The position numbers and the translations under genes are program-made. The notes below the pieces were generated by a model that had not been told where the DNA came from, did not search any database, and saw only the letters and a list, made by a program, of their open reading frames with translations. From NCBI RefSeq assembly GCF_030116705.1, contig NZ_JAOTIK010000001.1, positions 7,096,501-7,160,500 of the forward strand: a stretch of 64,000 nucleotides of DNA. Reading direction: 5' to 3'. The stretch comes from Streptomyces sp. ML-6 (GTDB taxonomy: Bacteria > Actinomycetota > Actinomycetes > Streptomycetales > Streptomycetaceae). Below are positions 23,990 through 61,191 of the stretch, one piece after another (within the stretch, counting starts at the first letter, position 1; each line of letters begins with the position of its first letter).

Positions 23990-24055
23990 CCCAAGGCCGG
24001 GTAGTTAACGTTTTCGCAGGTCATGCGCGCCAGTTGAAAGATTTCCGACGCAAGA

Positions 24056-24118
24056 GCAACGGAGCTCGTTGGTACAGGCAGTCGTCCAAGACAGCTTGTA
24101 CTCGAGGAGCTCCGTTGC
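24056..24118 (+). promoter_or_regulatory. Fold-back stem covering the transposase start (copy A)
   Basis: GCAACGGAGCTC (24056-24067) is perfectly complementary to GAGCTCCGTTGC (24107-24118), and the pairing can extend inward through GTACAGGC/GCTTGTAC. The right arm contains most of the GAGGAG ribosome site and the TTG start codon. A transcript entering from outside would fold and hide the start, a known self-protection device of IS10-like elements. The same structure is in copy B (42050-42112). Confidence 0.6.
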
Positions 24119-25755
24119 CGTTTCATCATGTCCTGCCGGCCTCGGTGATGGCCATCACCCGTACGGTCACAGTGGCCGCGGGCCGGTTCGCGCCCGGGCG
24201 TCTGGGCGAGTTGACGCCCGTCGTGCCGTTCGAGCTCATCGACGCGGTCCTGGCGGAGACCCGCTCGGTGCAGAGACGACTGCGCGATCTTCCTTCGCGG
24301 GTCGGGATCTACTTCCTGCTCGCGATGTGTCTGTTCCCTGAAGTCGGCTACCGGCTGGTCTGGGACAAGCTGACGGCCGGGCTGGCCGAAGTGCCGGTGG
24401 CCTCCCCCACGCCGAAGGCCCTGCGTGATCTGCGCCGACGACTGGGCAGTGCGCCGGTGCGGGCGTTATTCGAGGTTCTCGCGGGGCCTCTGGCACGGCC
24501 GACGACACCCGGTGTGCGGTTCGGGCCGTACCGGACTGTGTCATTCGACGGCTGCAGTTCGCAGAAGGTCCCCGACTCCGGGCGAAACAGGGCCTGGCTG
24601 GGGCGAACCTCCCATCACGGCTATCCCACACTGGAGTTGATGACGCTGGTCGAGACCGGGACACGGGCCCTGATCGGCGCAGTGTTCGGACCCACCGCCG
24701 AGGGCGAGACCAGCTATGCCTCGCGCCTGCTGCATCTGCTGCGGCCGGACATGCTCGTCCTGTGGGACAAGGGCTTCGACGGCAACGACTTCCTCGCTTC
24801 CGTCACCGCGACCCGCGCCCAGTTCCTGGGCCGACTCCGCAGCAACCGGCGTACCCCCGTCCTGACACGTCTCGCCGACGGCTCATACCTGTCGGTGATC
24901 GCCGCCGTGAAGGTACGTGTGATCGACGCGAACATCACGGTGACCTGCGCGGACGGCACCGTTTTCACCGGCTCCTACAGGCTGGTCACCACTCTGACCG
25001 ACGCCCGCCGATACCCGGCGGCCGCGCTGGTGGGCCTCTACCACCAGCGGTGGGAACACGAATCTGCGTACTACGCGCTCCGCCACACGATCACGAACGG
25101 GCGCGTCCTGCGCTCGGGCGACCCGGCCGGCGTCGAACAGGAGATGTGGGCCCTTCTCACCCTCTACCAGGCCCTGCGCACCATGATGGTCGAGGCCGCC
25201 GAGTCGCTGCCCGGCACCGATCCGGACCGCTGCTGCTTCACCATCGCGCTCCAGACCGCCCGCGACCAGGTCGTCCAGGCCGCCGCCGTCATCACCGACC
25301 CCGCCGATGTCGGCCGCGTCGGGCTGATCGGGCACCGGATCCTGGCCCGTCTCCTGCCGCCCCGACGGCAGCGCGTCAGCACCCGCAAGGTCAAGTCACC
25401 GATGTCCCGTTACAGCACCCGCCATGACGACGGCAGGCCCGACACCAGCCGCACGATCACCGGTCTCGACATCAGCGTCCTCGAACCTCGCGAACCGCAC
25501 CCTCAACTCCCCGCCATCTCCCGCGACGACCGGCACACAGCCCTCGCCGAGCGCCGACGTCACCGGATCCTGGGCCTGCTCGAGGAAAACCCCACCCGCC
25601 TCTGGCGCCCCCGTGACATCGCTTCCCACTTCGGCGACATCACCATGGAGACCATGTATCGGCAGCTCTCCAGATGGGCCGAGACCGGCCTCATCCACAA
25701 ACTTGGCCCCGGCCTCTACGCCGCCACTGCATGGACCCCAACACCCCTTGCGTGA
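24115..25755 (+). CDS. IS4-family transposase, copy A
   Basis: 546 residues from TTG 24115 (GAGGAG five bases upstream); the frame is open to the IS end. The N-terminal IS4 domain (AITRTVTVAAGRFAPGRLGE) precedes the DDE domain: SFDGCSSQKVPDS (first Asp), LVLWDKGFDGNDF (second Asp) and YHQRWEHESAYYALRH (YREK-type block with Glu). The C-terminal about 60 residues look like a winged helix (RDIASHFGDITMETMYRQLS). No damage seen, so the element is probably active. Confidence 0.9.
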   Translation: MPFHHVLPASVMAITRTVTVAAGRFAPGRLGELTPVVPFELIDAVLAETRSVQRRLRDLPSRVGIYFLLAMCLFPEVGYRLVWDKLTAGLAEVPVASPTPKALRDLRRRLGSAPVRALFEVLAGPLARPTTPGVRFGPYRTVSFDGCSSQKVPDSGRNRAWLGRTSHHGYPTLELMTLVETGTRALIGAVFGPTAEGETSYASRLLHLLRPDMLVLWDKGFDGNDFLASVTATRAQFLGRLRSNRRTPVLTRLADGSYLSVIAAVKVRVIDANITVTCADGTVFTGSYRLVTTLTDARRYPAAALVGLYHQRWEHESAYYALRHTITNGRVLRSGDPAGVEQEMWALLTLYQALRTMMVEAAESLPGTDPDRCCFTIALQTARDQVVQAAAVITDPADVGRVGLIGHRILARLLPPRRQRVSTRKVKSPMSRYSTRHDDGRPDTSRTITGLDISVLEPREPHPQLPAISRDDRHTALAERRRHRILGLLEENPTRLWRPRDIASHFGDITMETMYRQLSRWAETGLIHKLGPGLYAATAWTPTPLA

Positions 25756-40381: not shown

Positions 40382-42178
40382 CCCAAGGCCGGGTAGTTAA
40401 CGTTTTCGCAGGTCACGCAAGGGGTGTTGGGGTCCATGCAGTGGCGGCGTAGAGGCCGGGGCCAAGTTTGTGGATGAGGCCGGTCTCGGCCCATCTGGAG
40501 AGCTGCCGATACATGGTCTCCATGGTGATGTCGCCGAAGTGGGAAGCGATGTCACGGGGGCGCCAGAGGCGGGTGGGGTTTTCCTCGAGCAGGCCCAGGA
40601 TCCGGTGACGTCGGCGCTCGGCGAGGGCTGTGTGCCGGTCGTCGCGGGAGATGGCGGGGAGTTGAGGGTGCGGTTCGCGAGGTTCGAGGACGCTGATGTC
40701 GAGACCGGTGATCGTGCGGCTGGTGTCGGGCCTGCCGTCGTCATGGCGGGTGCTGTAACGGGACATCGGTGACTTGACCTTGCGGGTGCTGACGCGCTGC
40801 CGTCGGGGCGGCAGGAGACGGGCCAGGATCCGGTGCCCGATCAGCCCGACGCGGCCGACATCGGCGGGGTCGGTGATGACGGCGGCGGCCTGGACGACCT
40901 GGTCGCGGGCGGTCTGGAGCGCGATGGTGAAGCAGCAGCGGTCCGGATCGGTGCCGGGCAGCGACTCGGCGGCCTCGACCATCATGGTGCGCAGGGCCTG
41001 GTAGAGGGTGAGAAGGGCCCACATCTCCTGTTCGACGCCGGCCGGGTCGCCCGAGCGCAGGACGCGCCCGTTCGTGATCGTGTGGCGGAGCGCGTAGTAC
41101 GCAGATTCGTGTTCCCACCGCTGGTGGTAGAGGCCCACCAGCGCGGCCGCCGGGTATCGGCGGGCGTCGGTCAGAGTGGTGACCAGCCTGTAGGAGCCGG
41201 TGAAAACGGTGCCGTCCGCGCAGGTCACCGTGATGTTCGCGTCGATCACACGTACCTTCACGGCGGCGATCACCGACAGGTATGAGCCGTCGGCGAGACG
41301 TGTCAGGACGGGGGTACGCCGGTTGCTGCGGAGTCGGCCCAGGAACTGGGCGCGGGTCGCGGTGACGGAAGCGAGGAAGTCGTTGCCGTCGAAGCCCTTG
41401 TCCCACAGGACGAGCATGTCCGGCCGCAGCAGATGCAGCAGGCGCGAGGCATAGCTGGTCTCGCCCTCGGCGGTGGGTCCGAACACTGCGCCGATCAGGG
41501 CCCGTGTCCCGGTCTCGACCAGCGTCATCAACTCCAGTGTGGGATAGCCGTGATGGGAGGTTCGCCCCAGCCAGGCCCTGTTTCGCCCGGAGTCGGGGAC
41601 CTTCTGCGAACTGCAGCCGTCGAATGACACAGTCCGGTACGGCCCGAACCGCACACCGGGTGTCGTCGGCCGTGCCAGAGGCCCCGCGAGAACCTCGAAT
41701 AACGCCCGCACCGGCGCACTGCCCAGTCGTCGGCGCAGATCACGCAGGGCCTTCGGCGTGGGGGAGGCCACCGGCACTTCGGCCAGCCCGGCCGTCAGCT
41801 TGTCCCAGACCAGCCGGTAGCCGACTTCAGGGAACAGACACATCGCGAGCAGGAAGTAGATCCCGACCCGCGAAGGAAGATCGCGCAGTCGTCTCTGCAC
41901 CGAGCGGGTCTCCGCCAGGACCGCGTCGATGAGCTCGAACGGCACGACGGGCGTCAACTCGCCCAGACGCCCGGGCGCGAACCGGCCCGCGGCCACTGTG
42001 ACCGTACGGGTGATGGCCATCACCGAGGCCGGCAGGACATGATGAAACGGCAACGGAGCTCCTCGAGTACAAGCTGTCTTGGACGACTGCCTGTACCAAC
42101 GAGCTCCGTTGCTCTTGCGTCGGAAATCTTTCAACTGGCGCGCATGACCTGCGAAAACGTTAACTACCCGGCCTTGGG
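40382..42178 (-). mobile_element. IS4-family insertion sequence, copy B (1797 bp, inverted)
   Basis: Same length, same 34-bp ends and the same encoded protein as copy A, in opposite orientation 14.6 kb away. Left flank is an IS701-type transposase fragment, right flank an unrelated truncated coding sequence, so again the two sides do not match. With copy A it brackets an 18.2-kb unit holding the LamG/RHS/immunity genes. Confidence 0.85.
40413..42053 (-). CDS. IS4-family transposase, copy B
   Basis: 546 residues, same protein as copy A (start TTG 42053). All three catalytic blocks are intact: SFDGCSSQKVPDS, WDKGFDGNDF, YHQRWEHESAYY. The fold-back arms protecting the start lie at 42050-42061 and 42101-42112. 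Lack of divergence between copies means recent transposition or gene conversion. Confidence 0.9.
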   Translation of the reverse strand: MPFHHVLPASVMAITRTVTVAAGRFAPGRLGELTPVVPFELIDAVLAETRSVQRRLRDLPSRVGIYFLLAMCLFPEVGYRLVWDKLTAGLAEVPVASPTPKALRDLRRRLGSAPVRALFEVLAGPLARPTTPGVRFGPYRTVSFDGCSSQKVPDSGRNRAWLGRTSHHGYPTLELMTLVETGTRALIGAVFGPTAEGETSYASRLLHLLRPDMLVLWDKGFDGNDFLASVTATRAQFLGRLRSNRRTPVLTRLADGSYLSVIAAVKVRVIDANITVTCADGTVFTGSYRLVTTLTDARRYPAAALVGLYHQRWEHESAYYALRHTITNGRVLRSGDPAGVEQEMWALLTLYQALRTMMVEAAESLPGTDPDRCCFTIALQTARDQVVQAAAVITDPADVGRVGLIGHRILARLLPPRRQRVSTRKVKSPMSRYSTRHDDGRPDTSRTITGLDISVLEPREPHPQLPAISRDDRHTALAERRRHRILGLLEENPTRLWRPRDIASHFGDITMETMYRQLSRWAETGLIHKLGPGLYAATAWTPTPLA

Positions 42179-42505
42179 GCAAGGCCCGTCCAACATCTCG
42201 AGGACCTGCTCGCCGGTGTTCCGACGCTGAGCGTGCAGTTCAGCTTCGGCGACGCCTTCATCCACCACCCGGTCGAGGTCAACCCGCTCAACCCGCCGCG
42301 CTGGATCATGCCCGCCGATCTGGCCAGCTTGCTCTGGGCGAGCAACGAGTTCCCCTTCACAGCATCCTGGCGCCCCAACCCCACCGCATTTACGGCCGCG
42401 CCGCCCATCTTCGCCGCCGCGGAACCGACCCCTCCCGCGCGTTCACAGCCAGCTGCTGGCCGCGAGTCTGGTACGGGTCGGATGGCACTTCACCCGTTGA
42501 GGTGA
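42179..42505 (+). pseudogene. C-terminal fragment of an unknown protein, cut by IS4 copy B
   Basis: An open frame from the IS edge to TGA 42503-42505 reads VQHLEDLLAGVPTLSVQFSF, FIHHPVEVNPLNPPRWIMPA, LASLLWASNEFPFTASWRPN and a Pro/Ala-rich tail. It looks like genuine protein sequence but I recognise no family. The start and N-terminal part are missing. Confidence 0.4.
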
Positions 42506-50282: not shown

Positions 50283-50413
50283 ATTCAAGTGGTCACACAT
50301 CCGGAACTTCCCTGGTACCAGCGGGGCGTGAGACTTCGCTGAGACCTCGCGCCCCGTCTCCCCGGGCAGACTTGTGCTCCGTCGTCCCGCCGGACATGTT
50401 CAAGGGGAGGGCC

Positions 50414-51427
50414 ATGGGGACCCACACGATGTCGCCACTCGGTCTGAGCAGCACCGAGGAAGCGGTGTACCGGTTTTTCCTGCGGAATCCGGGCGCCGCC
50501 GTCCGTGACGCGCGCACCGCCGCGCCGATGGACGGGGAGGGCGTGGACCGGGCCGCGGCGCGGCTGCGCGACCGGGGGCTGCTGCACGGGAGCGAGGCGC
50601 GGACCTGGGCCACGGACCCGGGGGTCGTGGTGGCGCGGCTGACGGAGGAGCAGTTGGACGCCGCCTACCGGACGCTGCGCCGCCTCGCCGACCCGCGGCC
50701 GATCCTGCGCTCCCTGTGGCGGGACGCGCCCGCCCCCTCCTTCGCGGGCGGCGGGGGCGTCCACGCGGGGTCCGCGATCGCCCTGGATCGCCTGGATGAC
50801 CTGGGGCAGGCCCTCGCCCGGATCGACCGGGCGGCCTTCCACGCCGACGCCGAGATCCTGGCGGCGGTGCCCAACCGGGCCCTGGTCCCGTTGAGCACGG
50901 CCCACACGATCTCACTCGGCCTGCGCTGCCTGCGGCGCGGCGTCCGGGTGCGGACCCTGGTGGGGAGCGAGGCCCCGACGTCCCGGACCGGCACGGAGCA
51001 CCTCCGGCGACTGCGCTCCCACGGCGCGGAGGTCAGGGTCGCGGAGGGGCTCTCGGAACTGGTGCTGGTCTACGACCGGCGCACCGCGCTGGTCCCCGTC
51101 GACGCGCACGACATCGACCGGGGCGTGCTGTGCATCGAGGAGAGCGGCCCGGTGAGCAGTCTCGTCACCCTCTTCGAGAGGTTGTGGACGGCGGGGACGG
51201 ACCTCGCCGACCCTCCCGCGTCGAAGCCGGGCACCGAAAGCCTCACCGGGACCCAGCGCACGGTGCTGCTCCTCATGTGCACCACCACCAAGGACGAGAC
51301 GGGCGCCCGGGCGGCGGGCATGTCGCTGCGCACCTACCGGCGCCATGTCTCCGATCTGCTGGCCTTGCTGGGCGCGTGCAGCAGGGCCCAGGCGGCGCTG
51401 CTGGCCCGCGAACGCGGCTGGGTGTGA
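50414..51427 (+). CDS. TrmB/LuxR-type transcriptional regulator
   Basis: 337 residues from ATG 50414 (AAGGGGAGG three bases upstream). N-terminal winged helix (LSSTEEAVYRFFLRNPGAAV, VDRAAARLRDRGLL) of TrmB type. The middle is a PLD-like ligand domain (LRCLRRGVRVRTLVGSEAP; HGAEVRVAEGLSELVLVYDR). The C-terminal LuxR-like helix-turn-helix reads TGARAAGMSLRTYRRHVSDL. This two-HTH form is frequent in Streptomyces beside secondary-metabolite and lanthipeptide clusters. It is convergent with the operon ending at 51489, 61 bp away, and is the best candidate for pathway control. Confidence 0.8.
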   Translation: MGTHTMSPLGLSSTEEAVYRFFLRNPGAAVRDARTAAPMDGEGVDRAAARLRDRGLLHGSEARTWATDPGVVVARLTEEQLDAAYRTLRRLADPRPILRSLWRDAPAPSFAGGGGVHAGSAIALDRLDDLGQALARIDRAAFHADAEILAAVPNRALVPLSTAHTISLGLRCLRRGVRVRTLVGSEAPTSRTGTEHLRRLRSHGAEVRVAEGLSELVLVYDRRTALVPVDAHDIDRGVLCIEESGPVSSLVTLFERLWTAGTDLADPPASKPGTESLTGTQRTVLLLMCTTTKDETGARAAGMSLRTYRRHVSDLLALLGACSRAQAALLARERGWV

Positions 51428-51488: not shown

Positions 51489-52958
51489 TCATGCGGCCGG
51501 GGTTCCCGCGCCGACCGGGCCGAGCACGGGCAGCGGCCGGCCGAACTCGCGGCGCAGCGCCGACCGGGCCGCGAGCAGGCCGCACATGCCGTGCACCCCG
51601 GGTCCGGGCGGGGTGGCCGCCGAGCAGAGGTAGACGCCGGGCAGCGGGGTCCGGTAGGGGTCCCACCGGGGGACGGGCCGGAACACGGTCTGCCGCAGGC
51701 CGATCGCCCCGGTCGCGATGTCGCCGCCCACGTAGTTGGGGTTGTAGGCGGCGTAGTCCCGTCCGGACAGCCCGCGTTGGGCGACGATGGAGTCGGTGAA
51801 GCCCGGCGCGTACCGCTCGATGACCGCGCGGATCACGGGCAGCGGGTCGCGCGCGCTGCCGTGCGGCAGATGGGCGTACGCCCACACCGGGCGGCGCCCG
51901 GCCACCTCGCGCCCCGGGTCGGTCACGGCCGGGTCGACGACCAGGACGAACGGTGAATCCCCCTCCTTGCCGCGGGCGTTGGCGGTCTCCTGGCGGAAGA
52001 CCTCGGCCGCAGTGCCGCCCAGGTGCACGGTGCCCGCGCGACCGGTCTCCGGGGCCGACCAGGGGATCGGTCCGGAGACCAGGAAGTCCGCCTTGCCCGC
52101 GGCCGGGCCGTACCGGTACCGGGACAGCCACCGGGCGTAGCCGGGCGGCAGGGCGCCCCCGGCGAGGTCGGGCAGCGCGGTCGGCGCGATGTCCAGCAGG
52201 ACGGCCCGCGCCCCCGCCAGTTCCCGCAGGTCGGTGATCTCCCGCCCGGTATGCAGTTCCCCTCCGTGCGCCCGGATGTCGTCGGCCATGGCCTCGGCGA
52301 TGCGGGGGCTGCCGCCGCGCGGCAGCGGCCAGCCGGGGCCATGGGCCAACTGGGCCAGCAGCAGCCCGACCCCGGCGCCGGGCAGCGAGGGCAGCGGGCC
52401 GACGACGTGTGCGGCGGCCCCGGCGAGCAGCGCGGGGGCCGCCTCGCCGCGGAAAGTACGGGGGCCGAGCCGGGTCCCGTGGAGCAGGACCCGGCTCAGT
52501 ACGGCGGGCGCGGCGCGCAGCCCGCGCGGGCTCCGCAGATCGGACAGCAGCAGGTCGACCATGGCGTCGCTGTGTGTCAGCAGCGGTTCCATCAGCCGCC
52601 GCCAGCGCGGCCCGTCCGGGCCGAGGCCCGCGCAGGTGGCGTCCAGGTCGTGGTGGGCGAGGGCCACCCGGTCGCCGTCCAGGGGGTGGGCGTAGCTGAC
52701 TTCGGGCCGCAGCATCCGCACGCCCCGTCCGGCGAGGCCGAACTCCCGGAAGAACGGCGAGGCCACCGCCATGGGGTGGACGGCCGCGCAGATGTCGTGC
52801 ACCACCTCGGAGTCGAAGAGCGCGGCGCCGCGCAGTCCCCCGCCGATCGTGTCGGCGGCCTCGTACACGGCCACCCGCAGTCCGGCGCGGGCCAGGGTGA
52901 CCGCGGCGGCCAGCCCGTTCGGCCCGCTGCCCACGACCGCCGCGTCCACCGTGCTCAC
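51489..52958 (-). CDS. Phytoene-desaturase-like FAD-dependent oxidoreductase of the peptide cluster
   Basis: 489 residues from GTG 52958 in a GTGA overlap with the ABC transporter stop. Rossmann start AAVVGSGPNGLAAAVTLARA (residues 6-25) and a long substrate domain follow. The C-terminal FAD-binding signature is GVYLCSAATPPGPGVHGMCG. This is the carotenoid-desaturase/retinol-saturase superfamily, whose members add or remove double bonds. Being last in an operon with peptide genes, a methyltransferase and an exporter, it may dehydrogenate or oxidise the peptide or a lipid partner. No carotenoid genes are nearby. Confidence 0.82.
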   Translation of the reverse strand: MSTVDAAVVGSGPNGLAAAVTLARAGLRVAVYEAADTIGGGLRGAALFDSEVVHDICAAVHPMAVASPFFREFGLAGRGVRMLRPEVSYAHPLDGDRVALAHHDLDATCAGLGPDGPRWRRLMEPLLTHSDAMVDLLLSDLRSPRGLRAAPAVLSRVLLHGTRLGPRTFRGEAAPALLAGAAAHVVGPLPSLPGAGVGLLLAQLAHGPGWPLPRGGSPRIAEAMADDIRAHGGELHTGREITDLRELAGARAVLLDIAPTALPDLAGGALPPGYARWLSRYRYGPAAGKADFLVSGPIPWSAPETGRAGTVHLGGTAAEVFRQETANARGKEGDSPFVLVVDPAVTDPGREVAGRRPVWAYAHLPHGSARDPLPVIRAVIERYAPGFTDSIVAQRGLSGRDYAAYNPNYVGGDIATGAIGLRQTVFRPVPRWDPYRTPLPGVYLCSAATPPGPGVHGMCGLLAARSALRREFGRPLPVLGPVGAGTPAA

Positions 52959-54856
52959 CGGACGGCTCCCGCGCCCGGCAGGGCGGCCGGGACCGGCTCG
53001 GGCACCGGACCGGAGCCCGGCACCGTGCCCTGGGCCCCGTCCGGTACGGGGTCCGGCGCCGGGTGTCCGCCGAGGGGGCCGTCGGCGAACTGGGTGGCGG
53101 CCAGCCGCCGGTAGAGGGCGTCGTTGCCGAGGAGTTCGGTGTGCGTGCCCACCGCGCGCACCCGGCCCTCGTCCAGGACCACGATCCGGTCGGCCTCGGC
53201 CACCGTGGAGATCCGGTGGGCGATGGCGACGACGGCGCACCGCCCGGCGATGCCGCGCAGGCTGTCGCGCAGCGCCGCCTCGGCGTCGGAGTCCAGGTGC
53301 GCGGTGGCCTCGTCGAGCAGCATCACGTCGGGCTTCTGGAGCAACGCCCGTGCCACGCAGAGCCGTTGCCGCTGTCCGCCGGAGAGTCCGGTGCCCTGGT
53401 CGCCGAGGAGGGTGTCGAGGCCGTCCGGCAGCTCCGCCACCACCTCGGTGAGACCGGCGAGTTCGACGGCCTCGGCGATCTCCGCCTCGGTGGCGTCGGG
53501 CGCGGCGTACACGATGTTCTCGCGGAGGGTTCCGCGCATCGCGGCGTTGTCCTGCTGGACGTAGCCGACCCGGCCGCGGATCTCGGCGGACGGGAGGTGG
53601 GCGATGTCCCTGCCGTCGAGGAGGATCGCGCCGCCCCGGGGCCGGTAGAACCGTTCGATGAGCTGGAAGACGGTGGTCTTGCCCGCGCCGGAGGCGCCCA
53701 CCACGGCGGTGAGCCCGTGGGCGGGGACGGTGAACGACACGCCTTCCAGCACCGGCCGGTCGCCGTAGCCGAAGGAGACGTCGCGGAACTCCACTGCGGG
53801 GTGGCCGCCCTGCGGGGCCGGACGGGCGACCGGGTCGCCGGCGGGGGCGTTGGTCCGGCCGTCGGCCGGGTCCGCGGTGCCGGCCGGGTGCTCGTCCTCC
53901 TGCGGCAGGGTGTCGAGTTCGTCCACGCGCTGGACGGCCGCCCGGCCCTGGAGGTAGGTGCCGATCGAGAGGAAGACCAGGACCAGCGGCGACACCAGGT
54001 AGAACAGGTACATCGTGAACGCCGAGAAGTCGGCCAGGCTGATGGAGCCGGTGACGACACGGGCCATGCCGATGCCCATCACGGCGGCGAGCGACGCCTG
54101 GAGACCGACATTCAGCGCGGGCGTGAACAGGGCGTTCAGCACGGTGACCCGGTTGCCGGAGGCGCGGGCGCGGTCGGCGGACTCCGCCAGGCGGCGCTGC
54201 TCACGGCCCTCGGCGTTGGCGGCCTTCACCGTCGTCAGGGCGGCGAGCACGCGCTGCAGGTCGGCGCCGAAGTCGCCGATGTCCTCCCGGTTGGACAGGG
54301 CGGCCCGGCGCAGCGCGCGGGCCAGCCATACCGACCCGGCCCCGGCGATACCGAGGCATCCGCCGGCGACCAGCAGCAGCCAGATATCGGTGAACGCCAT
54401 CATCACCACGGCGCCGACCACGATCAGCCCGTTGAGGACGATCTGGGCGAGGCTCTGGGTGAGCGCGATCTTCATCAGGGAGGTGTCGGCGACCAGCCGG
54501 GTGTGCAGGTCGCCCTGGCGCCGGGTGTCGAGGTGCGTGCAGTCGGCCCGGAGCACCTTGCCCGAGAGCAGGACCCGGGCGTCGCGGACGATGTTCTCCC
54601 CCGCCCTGCCGATGAGACAGCCCTGGGCGGCGGAGAGCACGGCGTCCAGCAGGAACAGCACGACCAGCGCCACGACGATCCCGACCACCGGGCGGTGGTC
54701 CCCGGCGGTCCTGATCAGGTCGGCCAGCAGCACCGGCTGCGCCAGGGTGCACACCACGCCCAGCAGTCCGAGGGCGGTGCCACCGAGCAGCAGCCGCCAC
54801 TGCCCGCGCGTCAGGTTCCGCACGGCGCCGCCGGACGCCGCCACGGTGGCCGTCAT
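52955..54856 (-). CDS. ABC exporter, fused membrane and ATPase domains
   Basis: 633 residues. Six transmembrane helices in residues 20-310 (LLLGGTALGLLGVVCTLAQP; GIVVALVVLFLLDAVLSA and others). The nucleotide-binding domain has VVGASGAGKTTVFQLIERF (Walker A), YVQQDNAAMRGTLRENI (Q-loop), LSGGQRQRLCVARALLQKPD (signature), VMLLDEATAHLD (Walker B) and AIAHRISTV (H-loop). A Pro/Gly-rich linker (about 330-360) and tail are extra. No peptidase C39 domain, so leader removal would be by another enzyme. Start ATG 54856 overlaps the methyltransferase stop. Likely exports the mature peptide. Confidence 0.88.
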   Translation of the reverse strand: MTATVAASGGAVRNLTRGQWRLLLGGTALGLLGVVCTLAQPVLLADLIRTAGDHRPVVGIVVALVVLFLLDAVLSAAQGCLIGRAGENIVRDARVLLSGKVLRADCTHLDTRRQGDLHTRLVADTSLMKIALTQSLAQIVLNGLIVVGAVVMMAFTDIWLLLVAGGCLGIAGAGSVWLARALRRAALSNREDIGDFGADLQRVLAALTTVKAANAEGREQRRLAESADRARASGNRVTVLNALFTPALNVGLQASLAAVMGIGMARVVTGSISLADFSAFTMYLFYLVSPLVLVFLSIGTYLQGRAAVQRVDELDTLPQEDEHPAGTADPADGRTNAPAGDPVARPAPQGGHPAVEFRDVSFGYGDRPVLEGVSFTVPAHGLTAVVGASGAGKTTVFQLIERFYRPRGGAILLDGRDIAHLPSAEIRGRVGYVQQDNAAMRGTLRENIVYAAPDATEAEIAEAVELAGLTEVVAELPDGLDTLLGDQGTGLSGGQRQRLCVARALLQKPDVMLLDEATAHLDSDAEAALRDSLRGIAGRCAVVAIAHRISTVAEADRIVVLDEGRVRAVGTHTELLGNDALYRRLAATQFADGPLGGHPAPDPVPDGAQGTVPGSGPVPEPVPAALPGAGAVR

Positions 54857-55665
54857 GACCGTTCCTCACCGGAGGCGGGGCGGCGGTAGCGGCTGATGTG
54901 GACGCCGCTCCCCTCGGGCAGGAACGGGCCACCCGCCCAGTCGCCCTGCCGGGACACCAGGACGAGACCGGCGTCGGCGGCGTAGGAGTCGACGTCCTCG
55001 GCGGTGGTGAGCCGGGTGATCTCGGTGCCGATGCTCACCCGGCCGCCCTCGTGCACCAGGTGCGAGGCGTGCCAGAGCCCGCCGGGGATCAGGGTGGAGT
55101 AGGTCTGCACGCCGGTGCCCGGTTCGGCGTAGGGAATGAAGAAGGAGGTGCGGGCGTGCCCCTCGTGCAGGGCGGTCACGAAGCCGGGGTTGTGGGTCTC
55201 CACGACGAGGGTGCCGCCGGGTGCCAGGTGCCGGGCCGCGCGCGCGACGGCCGTCCGCTGCTCCGTCGGGTCGCAGATCAGTGAGAGGGTGGCGCAGACG
55301 CAGTAGACCAGCCCGTACCGGGAGTCGTCGGCGTAGGTGCGGATGTCGCCGTGCACCGGGGTGACCGGGGCGCCGGTGGCGTCGATGGTTTCGCACAGCC
55401 GCTGGAGCATCTCCGGCGAGGAGTCCACACCGACGACCTCGCCGGAGAGCCGGGCAAGCGGGACGGCGACGCGTCCGGTGCCCACGCCGAGTTCGAGGGT
55501 GCCTCCGCCGGGGTGCCAGGAGGCGAGGACCTCGGCGGTGCGTTCGGCGGAGCCGTCGTGGGGCAGCAGGCGGTCGTAGAAGTCGGCGAACACCCTTCCG
55601 TAGCCGATGTCCTGGACCTCGGGGGCGGTGGCCGCGGAGGCCCAGGAGGGGGCGGCGGTGCTCAT
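54853..55665 (-). CDS. Class I SAM-dependent methyltransferase of the peptide cluster
   Basis: 270 residues from ATG 55665, ATGA overlaps at both ends. Motif I TLELGVGTGRVAVPLARLSG (about 54-73), motif II acid in EVVGVDSSPEML, HGDIRTY, and post-motif LAPGGTLVVETHNPG. The FADFYDRLLP start is typical of the Methyltransf_25 group. The substrate is unknown; N- or O-methylation of the cluster peptide is the simplest reading. Confidence 0.83.
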   Translation of the reverse strand: MSTAAPSWASAATAPEVQDIGYGRVFADFYDRLLPHDGSAERTAEVLASWHPGGGTLELGVGTGRVAVPLARLSGEVVGVDSSPEMLQRLCETIDATGAPVTPVHGDIRTYADDSRYGLVYCVCATLSLICDPTEQRTAVARAARHLAPGGTLVVETHNPGFVTALHEGHARTSFFIPYAEPGTGVQTYSTLIPGGLWHASHLVHEGGRVSIGTEITRLTTAEDVDSYAADAGLVLVSRQGDWAGGPFLPEGSGVHISRYRRPASGEERS

Positions 55666-56270
55666 ACGGTCTCGCTTTCTCGCGCCGGTGCCGCGGTCTC
55701 GCGCATCGGTGTGTAGGGGGAGAGGAAGAGGATCTCGGGCTCCTCGGTCTCGTCGTAGCCCGAGTTCTGGACCAGGGCGAACTGGAAGCCCTTGACGTCC
55801 GGCGTGCCGGACCGCTCGATCTCCTCGCGGAAGAATTTGCGCAGGATACGGAAGGAGGGCAGGGTCACGGCCACCTCGAACCCGCGGTCGAGGACGCGCA
55901 GGATCTCGCTGCCCAGGTCGTACACCGCCTTTTCGCTGCGCCGTTCGGGGAACCAGACGAACTGGCGGGCGCGGCGACCCTGGATGACCTCCAGCGCGGA
56001 CCAGTCGGAGGTCTCGCCCGCCTCGTCGAGGGTGCGGTAGTAGAACTGGAAGTCGTGCTGGGCCGGAGTCGGGGCGAAGAAGCGCCAGTTGGGGAAGATG
56101 CTGGAGAGCGGGTCGAGCCGCTGGAGCCGGCCGAAGGACGGGTGCGGGTGCTGGCAGCAGACGGCGCCGAGGAAGGTGAGGCCGGCCACGAGGCGGACCT
56201 TGCCGTCCGTGCCGTCGAAGGCGCGGGTCAGCAGTGAGCCCGTGGCGCGCGGGAGACGGGGGTCGCTCAT
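55662..56270 (-). CDS. SdpA-like protein
   Basis: 202 residues from ATG 56270, overlapping its neighbours by ATGA on both sides. One N-terminal hydrophobic stretch (VRLVAGLTFLGAVCC) is followed by FGRLQRLDPLSSIFPNWRFF and APTPAQHDFQFYYRTLDEAG. This resembles the FP-W-FF motif of SdpA-family proteins, which work with the HTTM protein SdpB to mature the Bacillus cannibalism toxin SdpC. The rest is soluble (RQFVWFPERRSEKAVYDLGS). The pairing with an HTTM protein right upstream supports the assignment, but similarity is distant and function inferred. Confidence 0.55.
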   Translation of the reverse strand: MSDPRLPRATGSLLTRAFDGTDGKVRLVAGLTFLGAVCCQHPHPSFGRLQRLDPLSSIFPNWRFFAPTPAQHDFQFYYRTLDEAGETSDWSALEVIQGRRARQFVWFPERRSEKAVYDLGSEILRVLDRGFEVAVTLPSFRILRKFFREEIERSGTPDVKGFQFALVQNSGYDETEEPEILFLSPYTPMRETAAPARESETV

Positions 56271-58225
56271 CGGTTCTCCTCCTCGGACGCGGCGGTCCGG
56301 TCGGACGGCTCCGTCCCGGCCAGGGGTCCGGGCCCGGACCCCGGTTTCTGCCCGGCGGTGTCGGCCAGGAAGGCCAGCAGGTGGCGGAGCGTCTCGGCGG
56401 CGTACTGGGGGTCCGTGAGGATGCCGTCGTGGTCGGCGCCCTCGATGACGACGTTTCGGACGGTCCGGTCCCCGCTGTGGGCGTCGGCGAGGTCCTTGTG
56501 CATCAGCAGGTGCTCGGGGTCGCGGTCCACGGTCCGCTGGGCGGAGAGCACCAGGGCGTGGGTGTCCAGGGCGTCGAGTGGCCCGGTGAAGGAGGGGAAG
56601 TCCTGCTCGACGGCCTTCCACTCACGCACCGCGGCGGTCCACACTCGGGAGTCCGCGAATTCCATCCTGACCTTGTCCCGCACCTGTTCGGGCAGGTTGG
56701 CGACCGGCTCGGGCGTCCGCATCAGCGCCCCGAACCCCAGCCGCAGGCTGATGGCCATGGTGCGCAGGCCCTCCCCGATCCGCGGCGCGGTCGCGCCCTG
56801 CTGCGCCGACCGGGTGAGCTGGCCGGGGTGCGAACTGTCCACGTAGACGACGGAGTTCACCCGGGAGCCCAGCCTGACCGCCGCGCGGCGGGAGATCTCG
56901 CCGCCCAGGGAATGGCCCATCAGCACCACCTGGCGCCCCTCGGGGACCGCCGCGTCGATCAGGTCGACCAGGTCGTCGACCGACTCCTCCAGCGTGTACT
57001 CTCCGTCCGCGCGGCGCCGGCTGGGGCCGTAGCCGGCCCTGCTGTACATCAGCCACTGCCGATCCCCGCCGCCGAGGGCGCGGACGATCCAGGCGAAGTA
57101 CGCGGGGCAGGCGCCCAGTCCGTGGACGAAGACCACCACCGGGTTCGTACTCCGGCCGTCGAGGGTGCTCTGCACGCTCAGTTCGTTGCCGTGCCGGGTG
57201 GTGACGACGGAGCCGCCGTGCGGGGTGTCGGTGACGCGCAGCCGCCGGGCCACCGCGACCGTCCCCAGCACGGCCGCGCCGCCCGCCGCCAGCAGGGCCA
57301 CCGTGGCCGGCATGGTGTCGTCGCGGCCCGCCACCGCGGGGTGGCTGCGCGGCGTGCTGGTGTAGGCGACCATCGGGTGCATCGCGGCGAAGGCCGGGAG
57401 GAACCTGCCGAGGCCCATGACGTAGCCGTTGGCCATGTGGAAGAGGACGGCGCCGCTCAGCACCGGGCGGGTCAGCCGGCCGCCCTTCAGGTAGAGCACC
57501 GGGAACAGGCACTCCAGGCCCAGCACACCGTAGACGACGGCGCGGGCCGAGCGCGGGTAGCGCCGGGTCAGCTTCCAGACCCCCTCGTGCCCGTACGTCC
57601 TGGTCCGCATCACCCCCGCCAGCGCGGCCCCCGACCGCCAGTCGGGACCGAGCAGCTTGACCCAGCCGGAGATCAGGTAGGACAGGTTCCCCTGGAGCGC
57701 GACGTACCAGATCAGGGCGTCCTGGGTGCGGGACGAGGGGGCGAGTCTGGCCAGCCCGGTCACGGTCTGCACCATGGTGGACGCCTGGTCGGAGCCGTCG
57801 GTGCCGTAGCGCTCGGCCGGGTAGAGCAACGCCCCGCTGACGCCGAGGTAGAGGGTTGCGGCCCCGCGCCACCGGCCGTTGCCGGGCAGCATGAGGGCCG
57901 CGCTCGCGGCCACCCGTCCGGCGTGCAGCGCCCGGTTGGTCCGCTCGTCGGAGGCCAGGTCCAGCAGCTTGCGGAAGGGCCTGCCGTAACGGGCGTACGC
58001 GTCGCGGGAGATGGCCCATTCGTTCAGCCGGCTCGACCGGTGCTCCCGGCGGCGCGCGAGGTGCTCGACGCTGGACAGCAGGGACGTCGCCGCCGCCAGC
58101 CGCTCGGAGGCGCCCATGGCTTGCTCGCGGGAGAGAGGGAGGGGGCCTTGCAGGGCGGACAGGACCGCGCGCAGCGTCGGCCGCTGCCTGCGGGGACCAC
58201 TCGGTCGGGTGGGGCGTGAGGGCAT
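56267..58225 (-). CDS. HTTM (SdpB-like) membrane domain fused to an alpha/beta hydrolase
   Basis: 652 residues from ATG 58225 (GGAAGG upstream). Residues about 70-340 form a multi-helix HTTM/vitamin-K-carboxylase-like domain with AERYGTDGSDQASTMVQTVT, SGWVKLLGPDWRSGAALAG and FHMANGYVMGLGRFLPAFAA. Residues about 385-620 are an alpha/beta hydrolase: VVVFVHGLGACPAYFAWIV (oxyanion HG), VLMGHSLGGEISRRAA (nucleophile Ser) and EGADHDGILTDP (catalytic His). Linking SdpB-like membrane chemistry to a hydrolase in one chain is unusual; the hydrolase could cut or acyl-transfer the precursor at the membrane. First enzyme gene after the precursor genes. Confidence 0.75.
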   Translation of the reverse strand: MPSRPTRPSGPRRQRPTLRAVLSALQGPLPLSREQAMGASERLAAATSLLSSVEHLARRREHRSSRLNEWAISRDAYARYGRPFRKLLDLASDERTNRALHAGRVAASAALMLPGNGRWRGAATLYLGVSGALLYPAERYGTDGSDQASTMVQTVTGLARLAPSSRTQDALIWYVALQGNLSYLISGWVKLLGPDWRSGAALAGVMRTRTYGHEGVWKLTRRYPRSARAVVYGVLGLECLFPVLYLKGGRLTRPVLSGAVLFHMANGYVMGLGRFLPAFAAMHPMVAYTSTPRSHPAVAGRDDTMPATVALLAAGGAAVLGTVAVARRLRVTDTPHGGSVVTTRHGNELSVQSTLDGRSTNPVVVFVHGLGACPAYFAWIVRALGGGDRQWLMYSRAGYGPSRRRADGEYTLEESVDDLVDLIDAAVPEGRQVVLMGHSLGGEISRRAAVRLGSRVNSVVYVDSSHPGQLTRSAQQGATAPRIGEGLRTMAISLRLGFGALMRTPEPVANLPEQVRDKVRMEFADSRVWTAAVREWKAVEQDFPSFTGPLDALDTHALVLSAQRTVDRDPEHLLMHKDLADAHSGDRTVRNVVIEGADHDGILTDPQYAAETLRHLLAFLADTAGQKPGSGPGPLAGTEPSDRTAASEEENR

Positions 58226-58686
58226 GGACGGGCCTTCCGTGCTGGGGACGAACGAGGTTGGGCCGCCGGTGGGAGGCGGGGGGCGTCGGGGTGACGGGGC
58301 GGAGGGTGGCGGGCGGCTCCCGGACCGGTACGGGGTCCCACGGGCCGGGCAGGGGGCTGTCCGGGGTCGTACCGGATTCGTGCGGGACGGGTTCCTGCCG
58401 GGCCGGGCTCGTGCCGTGCGGGGTCCGTCCGTGCCGGGGCCGGGCCGTGAGTCCGGGCGTGGTGGTGGCATGGGTGGGCGACCGCCCTGGAGGCGCTCGT
58501 CCCCACGTCACCCACACACCGTCGCTTCCGGCCGGCCCCGGCACGGTGGCCGCGGCTCCCCGTGCCGGGGCCGGGGGCGACGGGCCTACCGTTCGGCGCC
58601 CGTGCCGCCGGGGCGGTCCACCGCCCCCTGGGACGCCGCCGCGTTCACGGGGCGTCCCCACCGGGGACGGGGACGGCGTAATGGGT
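58226..58686 (-). other. 461-bp leader between precursor genes and enzyme operon
   Basis: No gene supported. It is extremely G+C-rich, with a hairpin at 58610-58627 close to the last precursor. Possible translation in all frames is low-complexity Arg/Pro/Gly. It likely acts as an untranslated spacer and may hold a separate promoter for the enzymes. Confidence 0.4.
58610..58627 (-). terminator. Hairpin separating precursor genes from enzyme genes
   Basis: GGGGCGG (58610-58616), loop TCCA, CCGCCCC (58621-58627): a perfect 7-bp G/C stem 59 bp after the stop of the last precursor. It would reduce read-through into the 652-codon enzyme gene, giving more precursor than enzyme. Confidence 0.55.
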
Positions 58687-58887
58687 TCACATGGGGAGCT
58701 CGATGTCGCTGCCGGTGTAGTTGTAACCGGCGACGAAGGCGTTCACCAGGGCGACGCCGATGGCCACGCCGGCCACGACCCCGGGGGTCGCGGCGACCGG
58801 CGCAAAGGTCGACAGCGCCCGGCCGGGGTCGGACTCGGACAGACCGCCGGCACCGCGCAGGGCGGCCGGTGTCGGAGACGTGCTCAC
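58687..58887 (-). CDS. Precursor peptide 4 of the SdpAB-like cluster
   Basis: 66 residues, GTG 58887 with GAGGAGA upstream. N-terminal leader MSTSPTPAALRGAGG, conserved box LSESDPGRAL, then APVAATP and a hydrophobic helix VVAGVAIGVALVNAFVAGYN. It ends YTGSDIELPM. The leader box, PVAATP and SDIELPM tail are shared with paralogues at 58945 and 59678. No Cys. Hydrophobic centre with an acidic Pro-Met tail suggests a membrane-active core. Confidence 0.75.
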   Translation of the reverse strand: MSTSPTPAALRGAGGLSESDPGRALSTFAPVAATPGVVAGVAIGVALVNAFVAGYNYTGSDIELPM

Positions 58888-58944
58888 AGGGTTCTCCTCA
58901 CTGGAGTGATGGAACGAAATGGTCTGGTGTCGGGGGAAACGCGA

Positions 58945-59139
58945 CTACATCGGGAGTTCGATGTCGCTCCCGGCCGTGCGGCCAACCGCGTAACCGGCGA
59001 GGAACGCGACTCCCACGCCGGCCACGATGGCCACCGGGGTCGCGGCGACCGGCGCGAGGGCCGGCAGCGTCACGCCGGGGTCGGACTCGGTCAGGGCACC
59101 GGTCGAGGTCAGGACGGCCGGAGCCGAGGATCTGCTCAT
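58945..59139 (-). CDS. Precursor peptide 3 of the SdpAB-like cluster
   Basis: 64 residues, ATG 59139 with GGAGAG four bases upstream. MSRSSAPAVLTSTGAL, TESDPGVTLPALAPVAATP, helix VAIVAGVGVAFLAGYAV, then GRTAGSDIELPM. Differences from peptide 4 are conservative in the hydrophobic part, while the tail is identical, which points to selection on the C-terminus. It lies 57 bp upstream of peptide 4 on the same transcript. Confidence 0.75.
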   Translation of the reverse strand: MSRSSAPAVLTSTGALTESDPGVTLPALAPVAATPVAIVAGVGVAFLAGYAVGRTAGSDIELPM

Positions 59140-59212
59140 GAAACTCTCCTACTGGTGAGGTGTCGGGTACTGATGAGGTGCCGGGCCACCCGCAGCGGGC
59201 GGCCCGTCGGGC

Positions 59213-59386
59213 CTACTGCGGGAGCTGTGTGGTGCTTCCGGTGAGGCAGACCGAGATGTCGACGCAGGCCGTCATGGTGAACGTGACGGAGGCGACCGGA
59301 ACGGTGTCGAGCGGCGCCCGGCCGGGGTCGGACTCGGACAGGGCACCGGTCTCGGACAGAACGGCCGGTATCGAAGCGGTGCTCAA
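59213..59386 (-). CDS. Precursor peptide 2, divergent cysteine-containing variant
   Basis: 57 residues from TTG 59386, with AAGGAG six bases upstream. The leader is the same type (IPAVLSETGALSESDPGRAP, then PVAS). The core differs: FTMTACVDISVCLTGSTTQL then PQ, with two Cys seven residues apart, Thr/Ser-rich and without the SDIELPM end. It may be a partner peptide with a disulfide or thioether, or one on its way to losing function. Confidence 0.65.
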   Translation of the reverse strand: MSTASIPAVLSETGALSESDPGRAPLDTVPVASVTFTMTACVDISVCLTGSTTQLPQ

Positions 59387-59476
59387 GGACTTCTCCTTGC
59401 TGGTGGGCGGCCGGTGGGGTGACGTCATGGGCGGGCGGCGCCGACGGGACGGACCCACAGGTCGGGGCGCCGAGTG

Positions 59477-59502
59477 CCGTCGGCCGCGTACCCGGCCGAC
59501 GG
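59477..59502 (-). terminator. Stem-loop between precursor 1 and precursor 2
   Basis: CCGTCGGCCG (59477-59486), loop CGTACC, CGGCCGACGG (59493-59502): a perfect 10-bp stem in the 291-bp gap after precursor 1. Precursor 1 may thus be its own short transcript. Confidence 0.65.
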
Positions 59503-59677
59503 ACGGCCTTCGCGTCGTGGAGCCGTCATGGGTACGGCAACCGACGCGGGCGGCCCCTGACGGGACACGGCTCCGACGGGAGGGGGTCGGGACGGGCCGC
59601 CCCGGTGGGAGCGGCGGGTGTCCGGGCCACGCGCCGGGCGTCTTCCCCGGCCGATACGGGGGGCGGGGTGCCGCCGC

Positions 59678-59881
59678 CTACATCGGGAGCTCGATGTCGC
59701 TACCGCCGGCCAGCGCGCGGGTGGCTACGCCGGCCGCGAAGGCGACCACCACGGCACTCGCGGTGGCCACGACGGCCGGGGTCGCGGCGACCGGGGACGC
59801 GCCCCCGAACACCCGGCCACCGGCGCTCTCGTCGAGCGGGCCGATGCCCCTGGTCCAACCGGGCTGTCTGAATTCGGGCAT
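59678..59881 (-). CDS. Precursor peptide 1 of the SdpAB-like cluster
   Basis: 67 residues, ATG 59881 with AAGGAG four bases upstream. The leader differs in its first part (MPEFRQPGWTRGIGPLDES) but keeps SPVAATP, a hydrophobic helix VVATASAVVVAFAAGVATRA, and the tail LAGGSDIELPM. First gene of the minus-strand series and furthest from the enzymes. Shadow frames here lack ribosome sites. Confidence 0.75.
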   Translation of the reverse strand: MPEFRQPGWTRGIGPLDESAGGRVFGGASPVAATPAVVATASAVVVAFAAGVATRALAGGSDIELPM

Positions 59882-60122: not shown

Positions 60123-61191
60123 TCAGGGTCTGTCCGGTCCATCGGGAGCGAGGTCTGTCCCGGCGAGGAGTCCGCCGAGGACGCCGTGCCGGTACTGCAG
60201 CGCTTTGAGCCGCCTGCGGAGCAGAGTCTCCAGCTCGTCGGGGGTGGGGGCGGCCAGGTTGGTCAGGCTTCGCTTGGTGTGCGCCCCAGGCCCTCGACCG
60301 GGTGGAGGGCGGGCGCGTAACCGGGCCGCAGGACCACCGTCAGCCGGCCCCGCCCGGCAACGAGTGCCTTCATCGTCTTGGAGAGGTGGGTGTTCAGCCG
60401 GTTCCGCACCACGATCAGTGGGGCCTTGAGCAGTTGGTGGGCGCCGTCCACCAGGCGTATGCAGTCCGCCTCGCCCGGCGAGCGCCGCTCGCCCCTGCGG
60501 CCGGTATGCCGACGCAGCCGGTAGCACGGACGGGCGGGCAGGCCCGGCCGGAAGCACAGCAGACCGGCCACCGAGAGACGCCCCCGGGGCCGGACACCTT
60601 GACCCTCGGGGTGATGCCGCGCCGGCCCCGGGTACGGCCCTCGGGCGGCCGACCGGTCACGCCCGCTCCGTCCTCGAAGCAGACGAACGCGCCGGTCGCC
60701 GCCCGGAGGGTTCCACCTCCTGCCAGGCCGCCTCCCGCCATGCGGTGATCGCGTCCTCGTCGCGTTCGGCGGCGGGCCGGGCGGGCATCTGCACGCCGCA
60801 GCCCATGCGGTGCAGCAGCCGAGTGACCCCGGAAACACTGCAGGAGAGGCGGAACTTCCGCCCGATCGGCGTGCCTACCCGCGCGGCGGTCCACACCCGG
60901 CCGTCCGCCCCACCGTGCGCGGCCGGCCCCTCATCAAGCCCCGTCGCGAGCTCGGCCTGCAGGTGCGGGCCGAGCCCACAGCCGCAGGGGCCTTTGGAAC
61001 GCAGCGCCGCGCGCCCACCCGTCCTCCAGGCGCGGCGCCACTGGCAGACCGACTTCCCCACTCACCCGTAACTCCCGGGCTGCACACGGGATTTCCACGT
61101 CCTCATCAAAGAGGGCAATGGCCCGCATCCGTACCCCTTCCCGGCGCCTGCGCCGCTCGGCGGACAGCCTCCCCCCGTCCGGATACCGCAT
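60123..61191 (-). pseudogene. IS630-family transposase, multiply frame-shifted
   Basis: Pieces in successive frames cover the whole family length. ATG 61191 opens MRYPDGGRLSAERRRRREGV and DEDVEIPCAARELRVS. After a shift come SVCQWRRAWRTGGRAALRSK, LLHRMGCGVQMPARPAAERD and DAITAWREAAW. After more shifts come VCFEDGAGVTGRPPEGRT (first Asp region), RNRLNTHLSKTMKALVAGRG (normally DN-LN-H), and finally NLAAPTPDELETLLRRRLKA to the end. At least three frameshifts, so non-functional. Confidence 0.75.

What the first reader, a model, noticed from the sequence alone, without database searches (positions are those of the whole stretch)
51489..59881. Possible new class of SdpAB-like peptide system with four precursors, hydrolase, methyltransferase and desaturase
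Seen: four tiny paralogous genes upstream of five enzyme/transport genes joined by 4-bp overlaps (HTTM-hydrolase, SdpA-like, methyltransferase, ABC exporter, phytoene-desaturase-like). Known: SdpA and the HTTM protein SdpB mature SdpC in Bacillus without a classic RiPP enzyme. Inferred: an actinomycete system that processes hydrophobic peptides with an SDIELPM tail and adds methylation and dehydrogenation. It lacks the hallmark enzymes of lanthipeptide, lasso, thiopeptide, linaridin and daptide clusters.
Basis: partly seen in the sequence, partly recalled or inferred. Interest (0 to 1): 0.92.

Follow-up and report, generated by a model that had tools for sequence, protein, structure and literature searches.

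The report
Unusual linaridin-type peptide gene cluster
A Streptomyces gene cluster that looked like a new class of peptide factory turns out to be a divergent branch of a known one, the linaridins, with four overlooked greasy precursor peptides and a membrane enzyme part distantly related to one that matures a Bacillus toxin.

Summary
In detail: four small minus-strand ORFs precede five genes joined by 4-bp overlaps, and the ORFs have orthologues elsewhere. The 'new class' reading does not: this is a linaridin-type cluster.
- The 'SdpA-like' protein is the LinL homologue: its profile finds LinL of the CT34 linaridin locus (E 2e-25) and the S. griseus grisemycin locus (E 7e-18).
- The HTTM-hydrolase is LinH. 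Methyltransferase, exporter and FAD enzyme are 55%, 55% and 66% identical to the CT34 locus.
- Three of four precursors carry the linaridin leader motif PxxxTP.
Unusual: the four precursors match no NCBIfam precursor model. In 52 loci, 90 curated precursors are Ala/Gly/Val-rich and Ser/Thr-poor (mean 2.0 per core). In eight close loci the last seven residues co-vary within a locus, against orthology.
The linaridin HTTM profile matches SdpB (E 2e-12); LinL against SdpA is not significant (E 0.3). So the Sdp idea survives only as distant kinship of one partner.
Proposed mechanism: LinH/LinL epimerise (and sparsely dehydrate) the core, the leader is cut after PxxxTP, the N-terminus is dimethylated, the peptides are exported. 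No chemical step was tested. New variant of a known kind.

The parts
59678..59881 (-). precursor A1, 67 aa; leader 29 aa, PVAATP, core AVVATASAVVVAFAAGVATRALAGG, tail SDIELPM
   Evidence: orthologues in L003 (85% identical), L004 (76%) and weaker ones in L005-L009
59213..59386 (-). precursor A2, 57 aa, TTG start; PVASVT in place of PxxxTP; Thr/Cys-richer core, tail TTQLPQ
   Evidence: orthologues in L003 (86%), L004 (77%), weaker in L008 (41%)
58945..59139 (-). precursor A3, 64 aa; PVAATP; tail SDIELPM
   Evidence: orthologues in L003 (77%), L004 (67%)
58687..58887 (-). precursor A4, 66 aa, GTG start; PVAATP; tail SDIELPM
   Evidence: orthologues in L003 (83%), L004 (79%); weak core matches also in Curtobacterium L062 and L069
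56267..58225 (-). LinH: N-terminal HTTM membrane domain fused to an alpha/beta-hydrolase (GHSLGG); start inferred
   Evidence: GrmH 28% identical, LegG 31%
55662..56270 (-). LinL homologue (the 'SdpA-like' protein), DUF5819-like, motif PNWRFFAPTPA
54853..55665 (-). LinM-type SAM methyltransferase
   Evidence: 55% identical to the CT34 linaridin-locus methyltransferase; below the NCBIfam daptide_MTase cut-off
52955..54856 (-). LinT-type ABC exporter (membrane part plus ATPase)
   Evidence: 55% identical to the CT34 locus exporter
51489..52958 (-). FAD-dependent oxidoreductase (phytoene-desaturase-like), GTG start
   Evidence: 66% identical to the CT34 locus enzyme; no match in 2 of the 9 closest loci (L003, L007)
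50372..51427 (+). convergent LuxR-like regulator, probable cluster regulator
   Evidence: homologues in 22 of 79 related loci (34-95% identity, E<=1e-8); the LuxR assignment is by eye, not scanned

Best explanation
This is a linaridin-type RiPP cluster of a divergent subfamily. Four precursors with hydrophobic Ala/Val/Gly cores are bound at the membrane by LinH (HTTM plus alpha/beta-hydrolase) and LinL. These act mainly as a peptide epimerase that turns L- into D-residues, with dehydration of the few Ser/Thr as a minor event (inferred by homology to grisemycin and cypemycin). The leader is removed after PxxxTP, LinM dimethylates the freed N-terminus (mostly Ala, Gly or Val across the family), the FAD enzyme adds a tailoring oxidation of unknown site, and LinT exports the peptides. 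The product is probably a set of two or more helical, membrane-active, bacteriocin-like peptides. Shown here: gene content, homology, leader motif, conservation. Inferred: every chemical step and the activity.
For: LinL: profile A2 hits the CT34 locus LinL at E 2.1e-25 and S. griseus GrmL at E 6.9e-18, each in a whole genome. LinH: profile A1 hits LegG at 9.4e-46 and GrmH at 1.2e-45. The reference loci are linaridin loci by their precursors: L093 matches NF033752 cypemycin family (94.5 bits, cut-off 35), L092 matches NF033402 linaridin family (132.8 bits, cut-off 35). FAD, ABC and methyltransferase are 66%, 55% and 55% identical to the CT34 locus. PxxxTP leaders: 90 curated precursors in 52 loci, window included, shuffle control. 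LinH lies within 1.5 kb of LinL in 77 of 79 loci. A locus of the same LinL clade in S. scabiei (L044) lies about 20 kb beyond a ketosynthase-rich stretch, where PMC8914351 lists an antiSMASH 'linaridin' next to the concanamycin cluster (passages). LinHL named among RiPP epimerases: PMC10406935 (passage); GrmL as possible epimerase and alpha-N-dimethylation as the rule: PMC10373908 (passages).
Against: The four window precursors match no NCBIfam linaridin precursor model at E<=10, and A2 lacks the exact PxxxTP. Cores are poor in Ser/Thr (2.0 per core, 13 of 90 with none), while dehydrated Thr is a linaridin hallmark. PMC7794033 (passage) says LinH or LinL is thought to be the dehydratase, which fits such cores poorly. 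Window LinL is only 23% identical to GrmL and LegL by BLASTP. The LinL tree puts the window in a 44-row clade that excludes both (their branches are long). Corynaridin, a linaridin, is not dimethylated. The FAD gene gave no match in 35 of 79 loci and the methyltransferase in 23 of 79 (some loci are cut by contig ends), so those steps are not universal. Of the 79 related loci, 23 gave no PxxxTP candidate and five more only chance ones.
Confidence: 0.75

Rival explanations
1. A new SdpAB-like class unrelated to linaridins: the pair matures hydrophobic peptides as SdpA/SdpB mature SdpC.
For: HTTM of linaridin type is related to SdpB; SdpC homologues in L102 and L103 also have Ala/Val-rich hydrophobic stretches.
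Against: Enzymes and leader motif match linaridin loci much better; SdpA similarity not significant; no Sdp model hit for LinH, LinL or the precursors at E<=1.
Confidence: 0.07
2. LinH/LinL work here chiefly as the leader peptidase at PxxxTP (the hydrolase triad cutting the peptide), not as epimerase, and the cores are exported nearly unmodified apart from N-methylation.
For: The hydrolase domain of LinH also scores above the cut-off of PF12146 (serine aminopeptidase S33), among general hydrolase families; the other four operon proteins show no peptidase family; PMC9927463 notes that linaridin loci contain no gene for a leader protease; Ser/Thr-poor cores leave little to dehydrate.
Against: PMC10406935 and PMC10373908 (passages) point to LinHL or GrmL as epimerases; export-coupled or host proteases could cut the leader.
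Confidence: 0.2
3. A daptide-like system, since the methyltransferase scores best against daptide_MTase.
For: NF041820 is the top NCBIfam hit (83.5 bits).
Against: Below the cut-off of 175; the methyltransferases of both reference linaridin loci show the same best hit; none of the five operon proteins shows an alcohol dehydrogenase, aminotransferase or site-2 protease family; no window precursor ends in Thr, the invariant last residue in PMC10036551 (passages).
Confidence: 0.01

Closest known systems
Linaridin locus of Streptomyces sp. CT34 (type B layout, presumably legonaridin; L092)
   Same: ABC, FAD enzyme, methyltransferase, hydrolase, LinL and HTTM all present; FAD 66%, ABC 55%, methyltransferase 55% identical; PxxxTP leader
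   Different: there HTTM and hydrolase are separate genes; the precursor matches NF033402 and its core has 8 Ser/Thr in 34 residues; that this locus makes legonaridin itself is inferred from the strain and the precursor model
Grisemycin-type locus of S. griseus (type A linaridin; L093)
   Same: HTTM-hydrolase fusion followed by LinL, methyltransferase, PAMATP leader motif
   Different: no FAD enzyme in the 17.5 kb (tblastn, only chance fragments); the precursor is of the cypemycin family with a C-terminal Cys; only 28% (LinH) and 23% (LinL) identical
Corynaridin (PMC9927463)
   Same: LinL, HTTM protein, alpha/beta hydrolase, ABC transporter, PxxxTP (as described there)
   Different: type B with an SDR, no methyltransferase, Thr-rich core, separate HTTM and hydrolase; its sequences were not compared here
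Sdp system (SdpA, SdpB, SdpC)
   Same: partner with HTTM domain (profile E 2.4e-12); hydrophobic peptide product
   Different: no hydrolase domain called in the two SdpB homologues; SdpC is a longer protein; SdpA is not detectably homologous to LinL

Membership tests
linaridin-type cluster | LinL homologue (used to identify linaridin clusters, PMC9927463) | tested here: met
   A2 profile E 2.1e-25 to the CT34 LinL, 6.9e-18 to GrmL; BLASTP E 2e-11 and 3e-6 in a small set of proteins, composition correction off
linaridin-type cluster | LinH, or HTTM protein plus alpha/beta hydrolase | tested here: met
   profile E about 1e-45 to LegG and GrmH; GrmH 28%, LegG 31%, LegE 25% identical
linaridin-type cluster | PxxxTP leader motif in the precursor | tested here: met
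   A1, A3, A4 PVAATP; A2 deviates (PVASVT); 90 precursors in 52 loci
linaridin-type cluster | methyltransferase and exporter of the linaridin kind | tested here: met
   55% and 55% identical to the CT34 linaridin locus
linaridin-type cluster | dehydrobutyrine from Thr, D-residues, N,N-dimethyl N-terminus in the product | not testable with these tools
   needs mass spectrometry and chiral analysis
known linaridin precursor subfamilies (NF033402, NF033403, NF033752) | precursor scores above the model cut-off | tested here: not met
   no hit for any of the 4 window precursors at E<=10; of 5 precursors from related loci, two hit NF033402 at E 0.12-0.13 (12 bits, cut-off 35), three did not
Sdp system | SdpA-family protein (TIGR04034, PF17418) | tested here: not met
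   no hit at E<=1; own genome none; hhalign E 0.29 and 0.39
Sdp system | SdpB-family HTTM protein (TIGR04033) | tested here: not met
   window LinH has no hit at E<=1; distant kinship by the A3 profile, E 2.4e-12
Sdp system | SdpC-like precursor | tested here: not met
   no NCBIfam hit for the four precursors
daptide | oxidative decarboxylase, aminotransferase, RRE-peptidase, C-terminal Thr | tested here: not met
   no such Pfam family among the 5 operon proteins; precursors end in M or Q; no separate RRE search was made

The most novel reading that the evidence does not exclude
LinL with the linaridin HTTM, and SdpA with SdpB, are two descendants of one ancient membrane module that epimerises hydrophobic peptides. 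In the window's subfamily this chemistry runs almost without dehydration, giving Ser/Thr-poor D-residue peptides in sets of two to four. By the same logic the Bacillus toxin SDP could contain mass-silent D-residues. The invariant HTTM lysine (K154; 22 of 22 rows of A3) would be the general base, as the equivalent lysine is in vitamin-K carboxylase (recalled, not tested).
Probability: 0.12. Interest if true: 0.85.

Novelty: new variant of a known kind. Interest (0 to 1): 0.5.

Why it matters
A precursor family that the NCBIfam linaridin precursor models do not recognise (4 of 4 window precursors and 5 of 5 others tested stay below the cut-offs) sits beside linaridin enzymes in many actinomycetes (90 precursors in 52 loci). 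Because its cores carry so few Ser/Thr, it is a natural test of what LinH/LinL do: if they are mainly dehydratases these clusters make little sense, if mainly epimerases they are ideal substrates. The HTTM-SdpB profile match gives a testable lead on the unknown chemistry of SdpA/SdpB. The co-varying C-terminal tails point to an unrecognised recognition element.

Tried and rejected

Daptide rejected on gene content. Georgiou et al. 2020 (the linaridin survey; PMC9927463 speaks of 561 clusters from an earlier analysis) is not held, so whether its set contains these loci could not be checked; this is the main limit on the novelty claim. Searches for a LinL/LinH to SdpA/SdpB link or for this precursor family showed none in the listings seen (one search showed 25 of 38 papers, 40 of 84); the library lacks most subscription papers. 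PMC5719810 (passages) lists linaridin and SDP clusters in Brevibacterium as separate groups. Passages of PMC8068269, PMC9576775 and PMC13343845 added nothing decisive.

Curation told: one search gave 106 candidates in 57 of 80 loci. Sixteen were dropped for the 90-precursor set (listed): fifteen look like chance, including PTPTTP inside the methyltransferase gene of the window, and one (L018 at 12615) looks real but lies outside the position rule. The rule was a motif, strand and position filter plus hand choices (L052 dropped, minus-strand precursors of L065 and L073 added). The shuffle was of two-base blocks, not a strict dinucleotide shuffle. In one search a gene counts as present if it matches anywhere in the fetched locus at E<=1e-10, so some ABC or FAD matches may be unrelated genes. 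The tail test uses 8 hand-chosen close loci and 24 precursors (A2 left out), was thought of after seeing the tails, and its loci are related; in L005-L007 the tails are little shared; gene conversion is possible in L009, where the tail DNA is nearly identical. Profiles A1 and A2 contain the CT34 paralogues P0125 and P0183, not the L092 proteins.
Full report
What is there. On the minus strand, four short ORFs (59881-58687) are followed by five genes (58225-51489) with 4-bp overlaps at every junction. Three short ORFs end in SDIELPM; the second (TTG start) ends in TTQLPQ. All four have exactly 29 residues before a motif PVAATP (A1, A3, A4) or PVASVT (A2). All four have orthologues in S. griseus NCTC13033 (L003; 77-86% identical) and Streptomyces sp. 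SID8352 (L004; 67-79%), so they are genes.

The enzymes are linaridin enzymes. A profile of the SdpA-like protein and its relatives (A2) was searched in whole genomes. Besides the close copies it finds LinL of the linaridin locus of Streptomyces sp. CT34 (E 2.1e-25) and of S. griseus (E 6.9e-18). A profile of the HTTM-hydrolase (A1) finds LegG (9.4e-46) and GrmH (1.2e-45) in the same places. I fetched both places (L092, L093) and read the genes. Their precursors match NCBIfam models: L093 the cypemycin family (94.5 bits, cut-off 35), L092 the linaridin family (132.8 bits). The CT34 locus contains the same set as the window: ABC, FAD enzyme, methyltransferase, hydrolase, LinL, HTTM. FAD enzymes are 66% identical, ABC 55%, methyltransferases 55%, LinH against LegG 31%, LinL against LegL 23%. 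The S. griseus locus has no FAD enzyme. That the CT34 locus makes legonaridin is inferred from the strain and the precursor model, not read from the original paper. LinL, HTTM protein, hydrolase, exporter and PxxxTP are also the linaridin signature described for corynaridin (PMC9927463, passages and one section). In S. scabiei 87-22 a locus of the same LinL clade (L044, 9394339-9412896) lies about 20 kb beyond a run of ketosynthase domains that ends at 9374664. PMC8914351 lists concanamycin followed by an antiSMASH 'linaridin' (passages); the equation of the two is inferred from position.

The precursors are unusual. The only Pfam hit at E<=1 is DUF6457 for A3 at 0.24, below its cut-off; NCBIfam gives none at E<=10. 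Of five precursors from related loci tested, two hit NF033402 at only 12 bits. A scan of the 79 related loci plus the window finds PxxxTP ORFs in 51 of 70 loci with at least 5.5 kb upstream (57 of all 80), against 21 of 240 shuffled regions; 96 of 106 candidates are on the operon strand. After curation 90 precursors in 52 loci remain (48 of the 70). They have a mean of 2.0 Ser+Thr per core (6.3% of residues; 13 of 90 have none) and 72% Ala/Gly/Val/Ile/Leu. The CT34 core has 8 of 34 Ser/Thr and the grisemycin core 2 of 16, so the contrast with grisemycin is smaller. The first core residue is Ala in 58, Gly in 13, Val in 10, Arg in 6, Thr in 2 and Leu in 1. Of the 52 loci, 21 have one, 24 two and 7 three precursors in this count. 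Several pair an 'ALAGAFVGGAAVVTGAYAAGKAVG' type with a 'GAFLGGVAIASATVAAFEAGQG' type, which suggests a two-peptide system (inference).

A C-terminal tag. In eight close loci, leader and core follow orthology (paralogues of one locus 0.36 and 0.36 identical, orthologues across loci 0.48 and 0.50), but the last seven residues do the opposite (0.61 against 0.25; 24 paralogue and 84 orthologue pairs; 0 of 500 permutations reach the observed difference). In the window the three tails differ only by synonymous bases. In L009 the tails are nearly identical in DNA, so gene conversion is possible there. The test was post hoc and the loci are related.

Relation to Sdp. The A3 profile (22 HTTM domains of linaridin type) matches SdpB of two actinobacterial Sdp loci at E 2.4e-12 and 1.2e-5, with the best of the 6 reversed and 1800 shuffled decoys at 0.048; LegG itself hits TIGR04033 at 1.7e-4. 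LinL against SdpA is not significant (E 0.29 and 0.39), though both runs align PNWRFFAPTPA with SdpA's QGWAFFTKSPR; a single-profile search of the two SdpA proteins also found nothing above decoys. LinL belongs with DUF5819 instead (23 of 24 members of A5 hit it, best E 2.7e-7, the window at 7e-4 below the cut-off). TIGR04034 matches in 3 of 396 genomes of the phylum (2 over the cut-off) and not in the window's own. Twenty HTTM columns are invariant across the 22 rows, including K154, H227 and D107. The lysine's likeness to the catalytic lysine of vitamin-K carboxylase is recalled; PDB searches gave no support.

Distribution. LinH is present in 78 of 79 loci and within 1.5 kb of LinL in 77; 59 have a LinH hit of fused length (at least 450 aa). 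Methyltransferase in 56, ABC in 63, FAD enzyme in 44, all five in 38 (matches anywhere in the fetched stretch at E<=1e-10; several loci are cut by contig ends). The LinL tree of 81 rows places the window in a well-supported 44-row clade (99/99) that excludes LegL and GrmL, both on long branches. Hosts include Streptomyces, Nocardiopsis, Amycolatopsis, Tsukamurella, Curtobacterium, Leifsonia and Ilumatobacter (which kept the best 80 of 94 matches). The window's genome has a second LinL locus.

Mechanism. LinHL are named among RiPP epimerases (PMC10406935, passage) and GrmL as a possible epimerase needed for grisemycin (PMC10373908, passage); PMC7794033 (passage) says LinH or LinL is thought to dehydrate. 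PMC10373908 says all characterised linaridins are N-terminally dimethylated, though corynaridin is not. A Ser/Thr-poor hydrophobic core is an odd substrate for a dehydratase and a natural one for an epimerase. So I propose epimerisation as the main step here, then cleavage after PxxxTP, N-dimethylation, an unknown FAD-dependent oxidation, and export. None of these steps was tested.

Novelty. The cluster kind is known; the precursor family and its tails were not found described in the listings seen. The key survey (Georgiou 2020) could not be read.

Noticed in passing
window 50372-51427 (+): LuxR-like regulator convergent with the FAD gene, with homologues in 22 of 79 related loci.
   Followed up: partly
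L097 (G000:C1:147615-148133): The window's own genome holds a second LinL locus with split HTTM and hydrolase, like S. atratus L075 and S. gelaticus L076; the scan found no precursor in L075-L077.
   Followed up: partly
L002 upstream of LinH: S. anulatus JCM 4721 keeps the enzyme operon at 95% DNA identity but the precursor block is missing from the fetched stretch; a regulator-like reading frame (by eye) abuts LinH.
   Followed up: partly
L003 12355-12576 and L007: In S. griseus NCTC13033 only a remnant of the FAD gene aligns, and S. abyssomicinicus has no match, although ABC and regulator remain, so the FAD gene seems dispensable.
   Followed up: partly
window A1, A3, A4 C-termini: The last seven residues co-vary among precursors of one locus against orthology.
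   Followed up: yes
window 23986-25752 (+) and 40416-42182 (-): Two ORFs with the same first 50 residues in inverted orientation (transposase-like, not scanned) flank two very large genes of 1214 and 2144 aa; possibly a composite mobile element.
   Followed up: no
window 60123-61061 (-): Fragments that look like a decayed IS630-type transposase just upstream of A1 (by eye, not scanned).
   Followed up: no
L059, L063, L064, L065, L066, L073: Pseudonocardiaceae-type loci have longer cores (51-54 aa) ending in a shared G(K/R)SG(A/T)ELL-containing tail, and only the HTTM part of LinH aligns in one piece, suggesting split genes.
   Followed up: no
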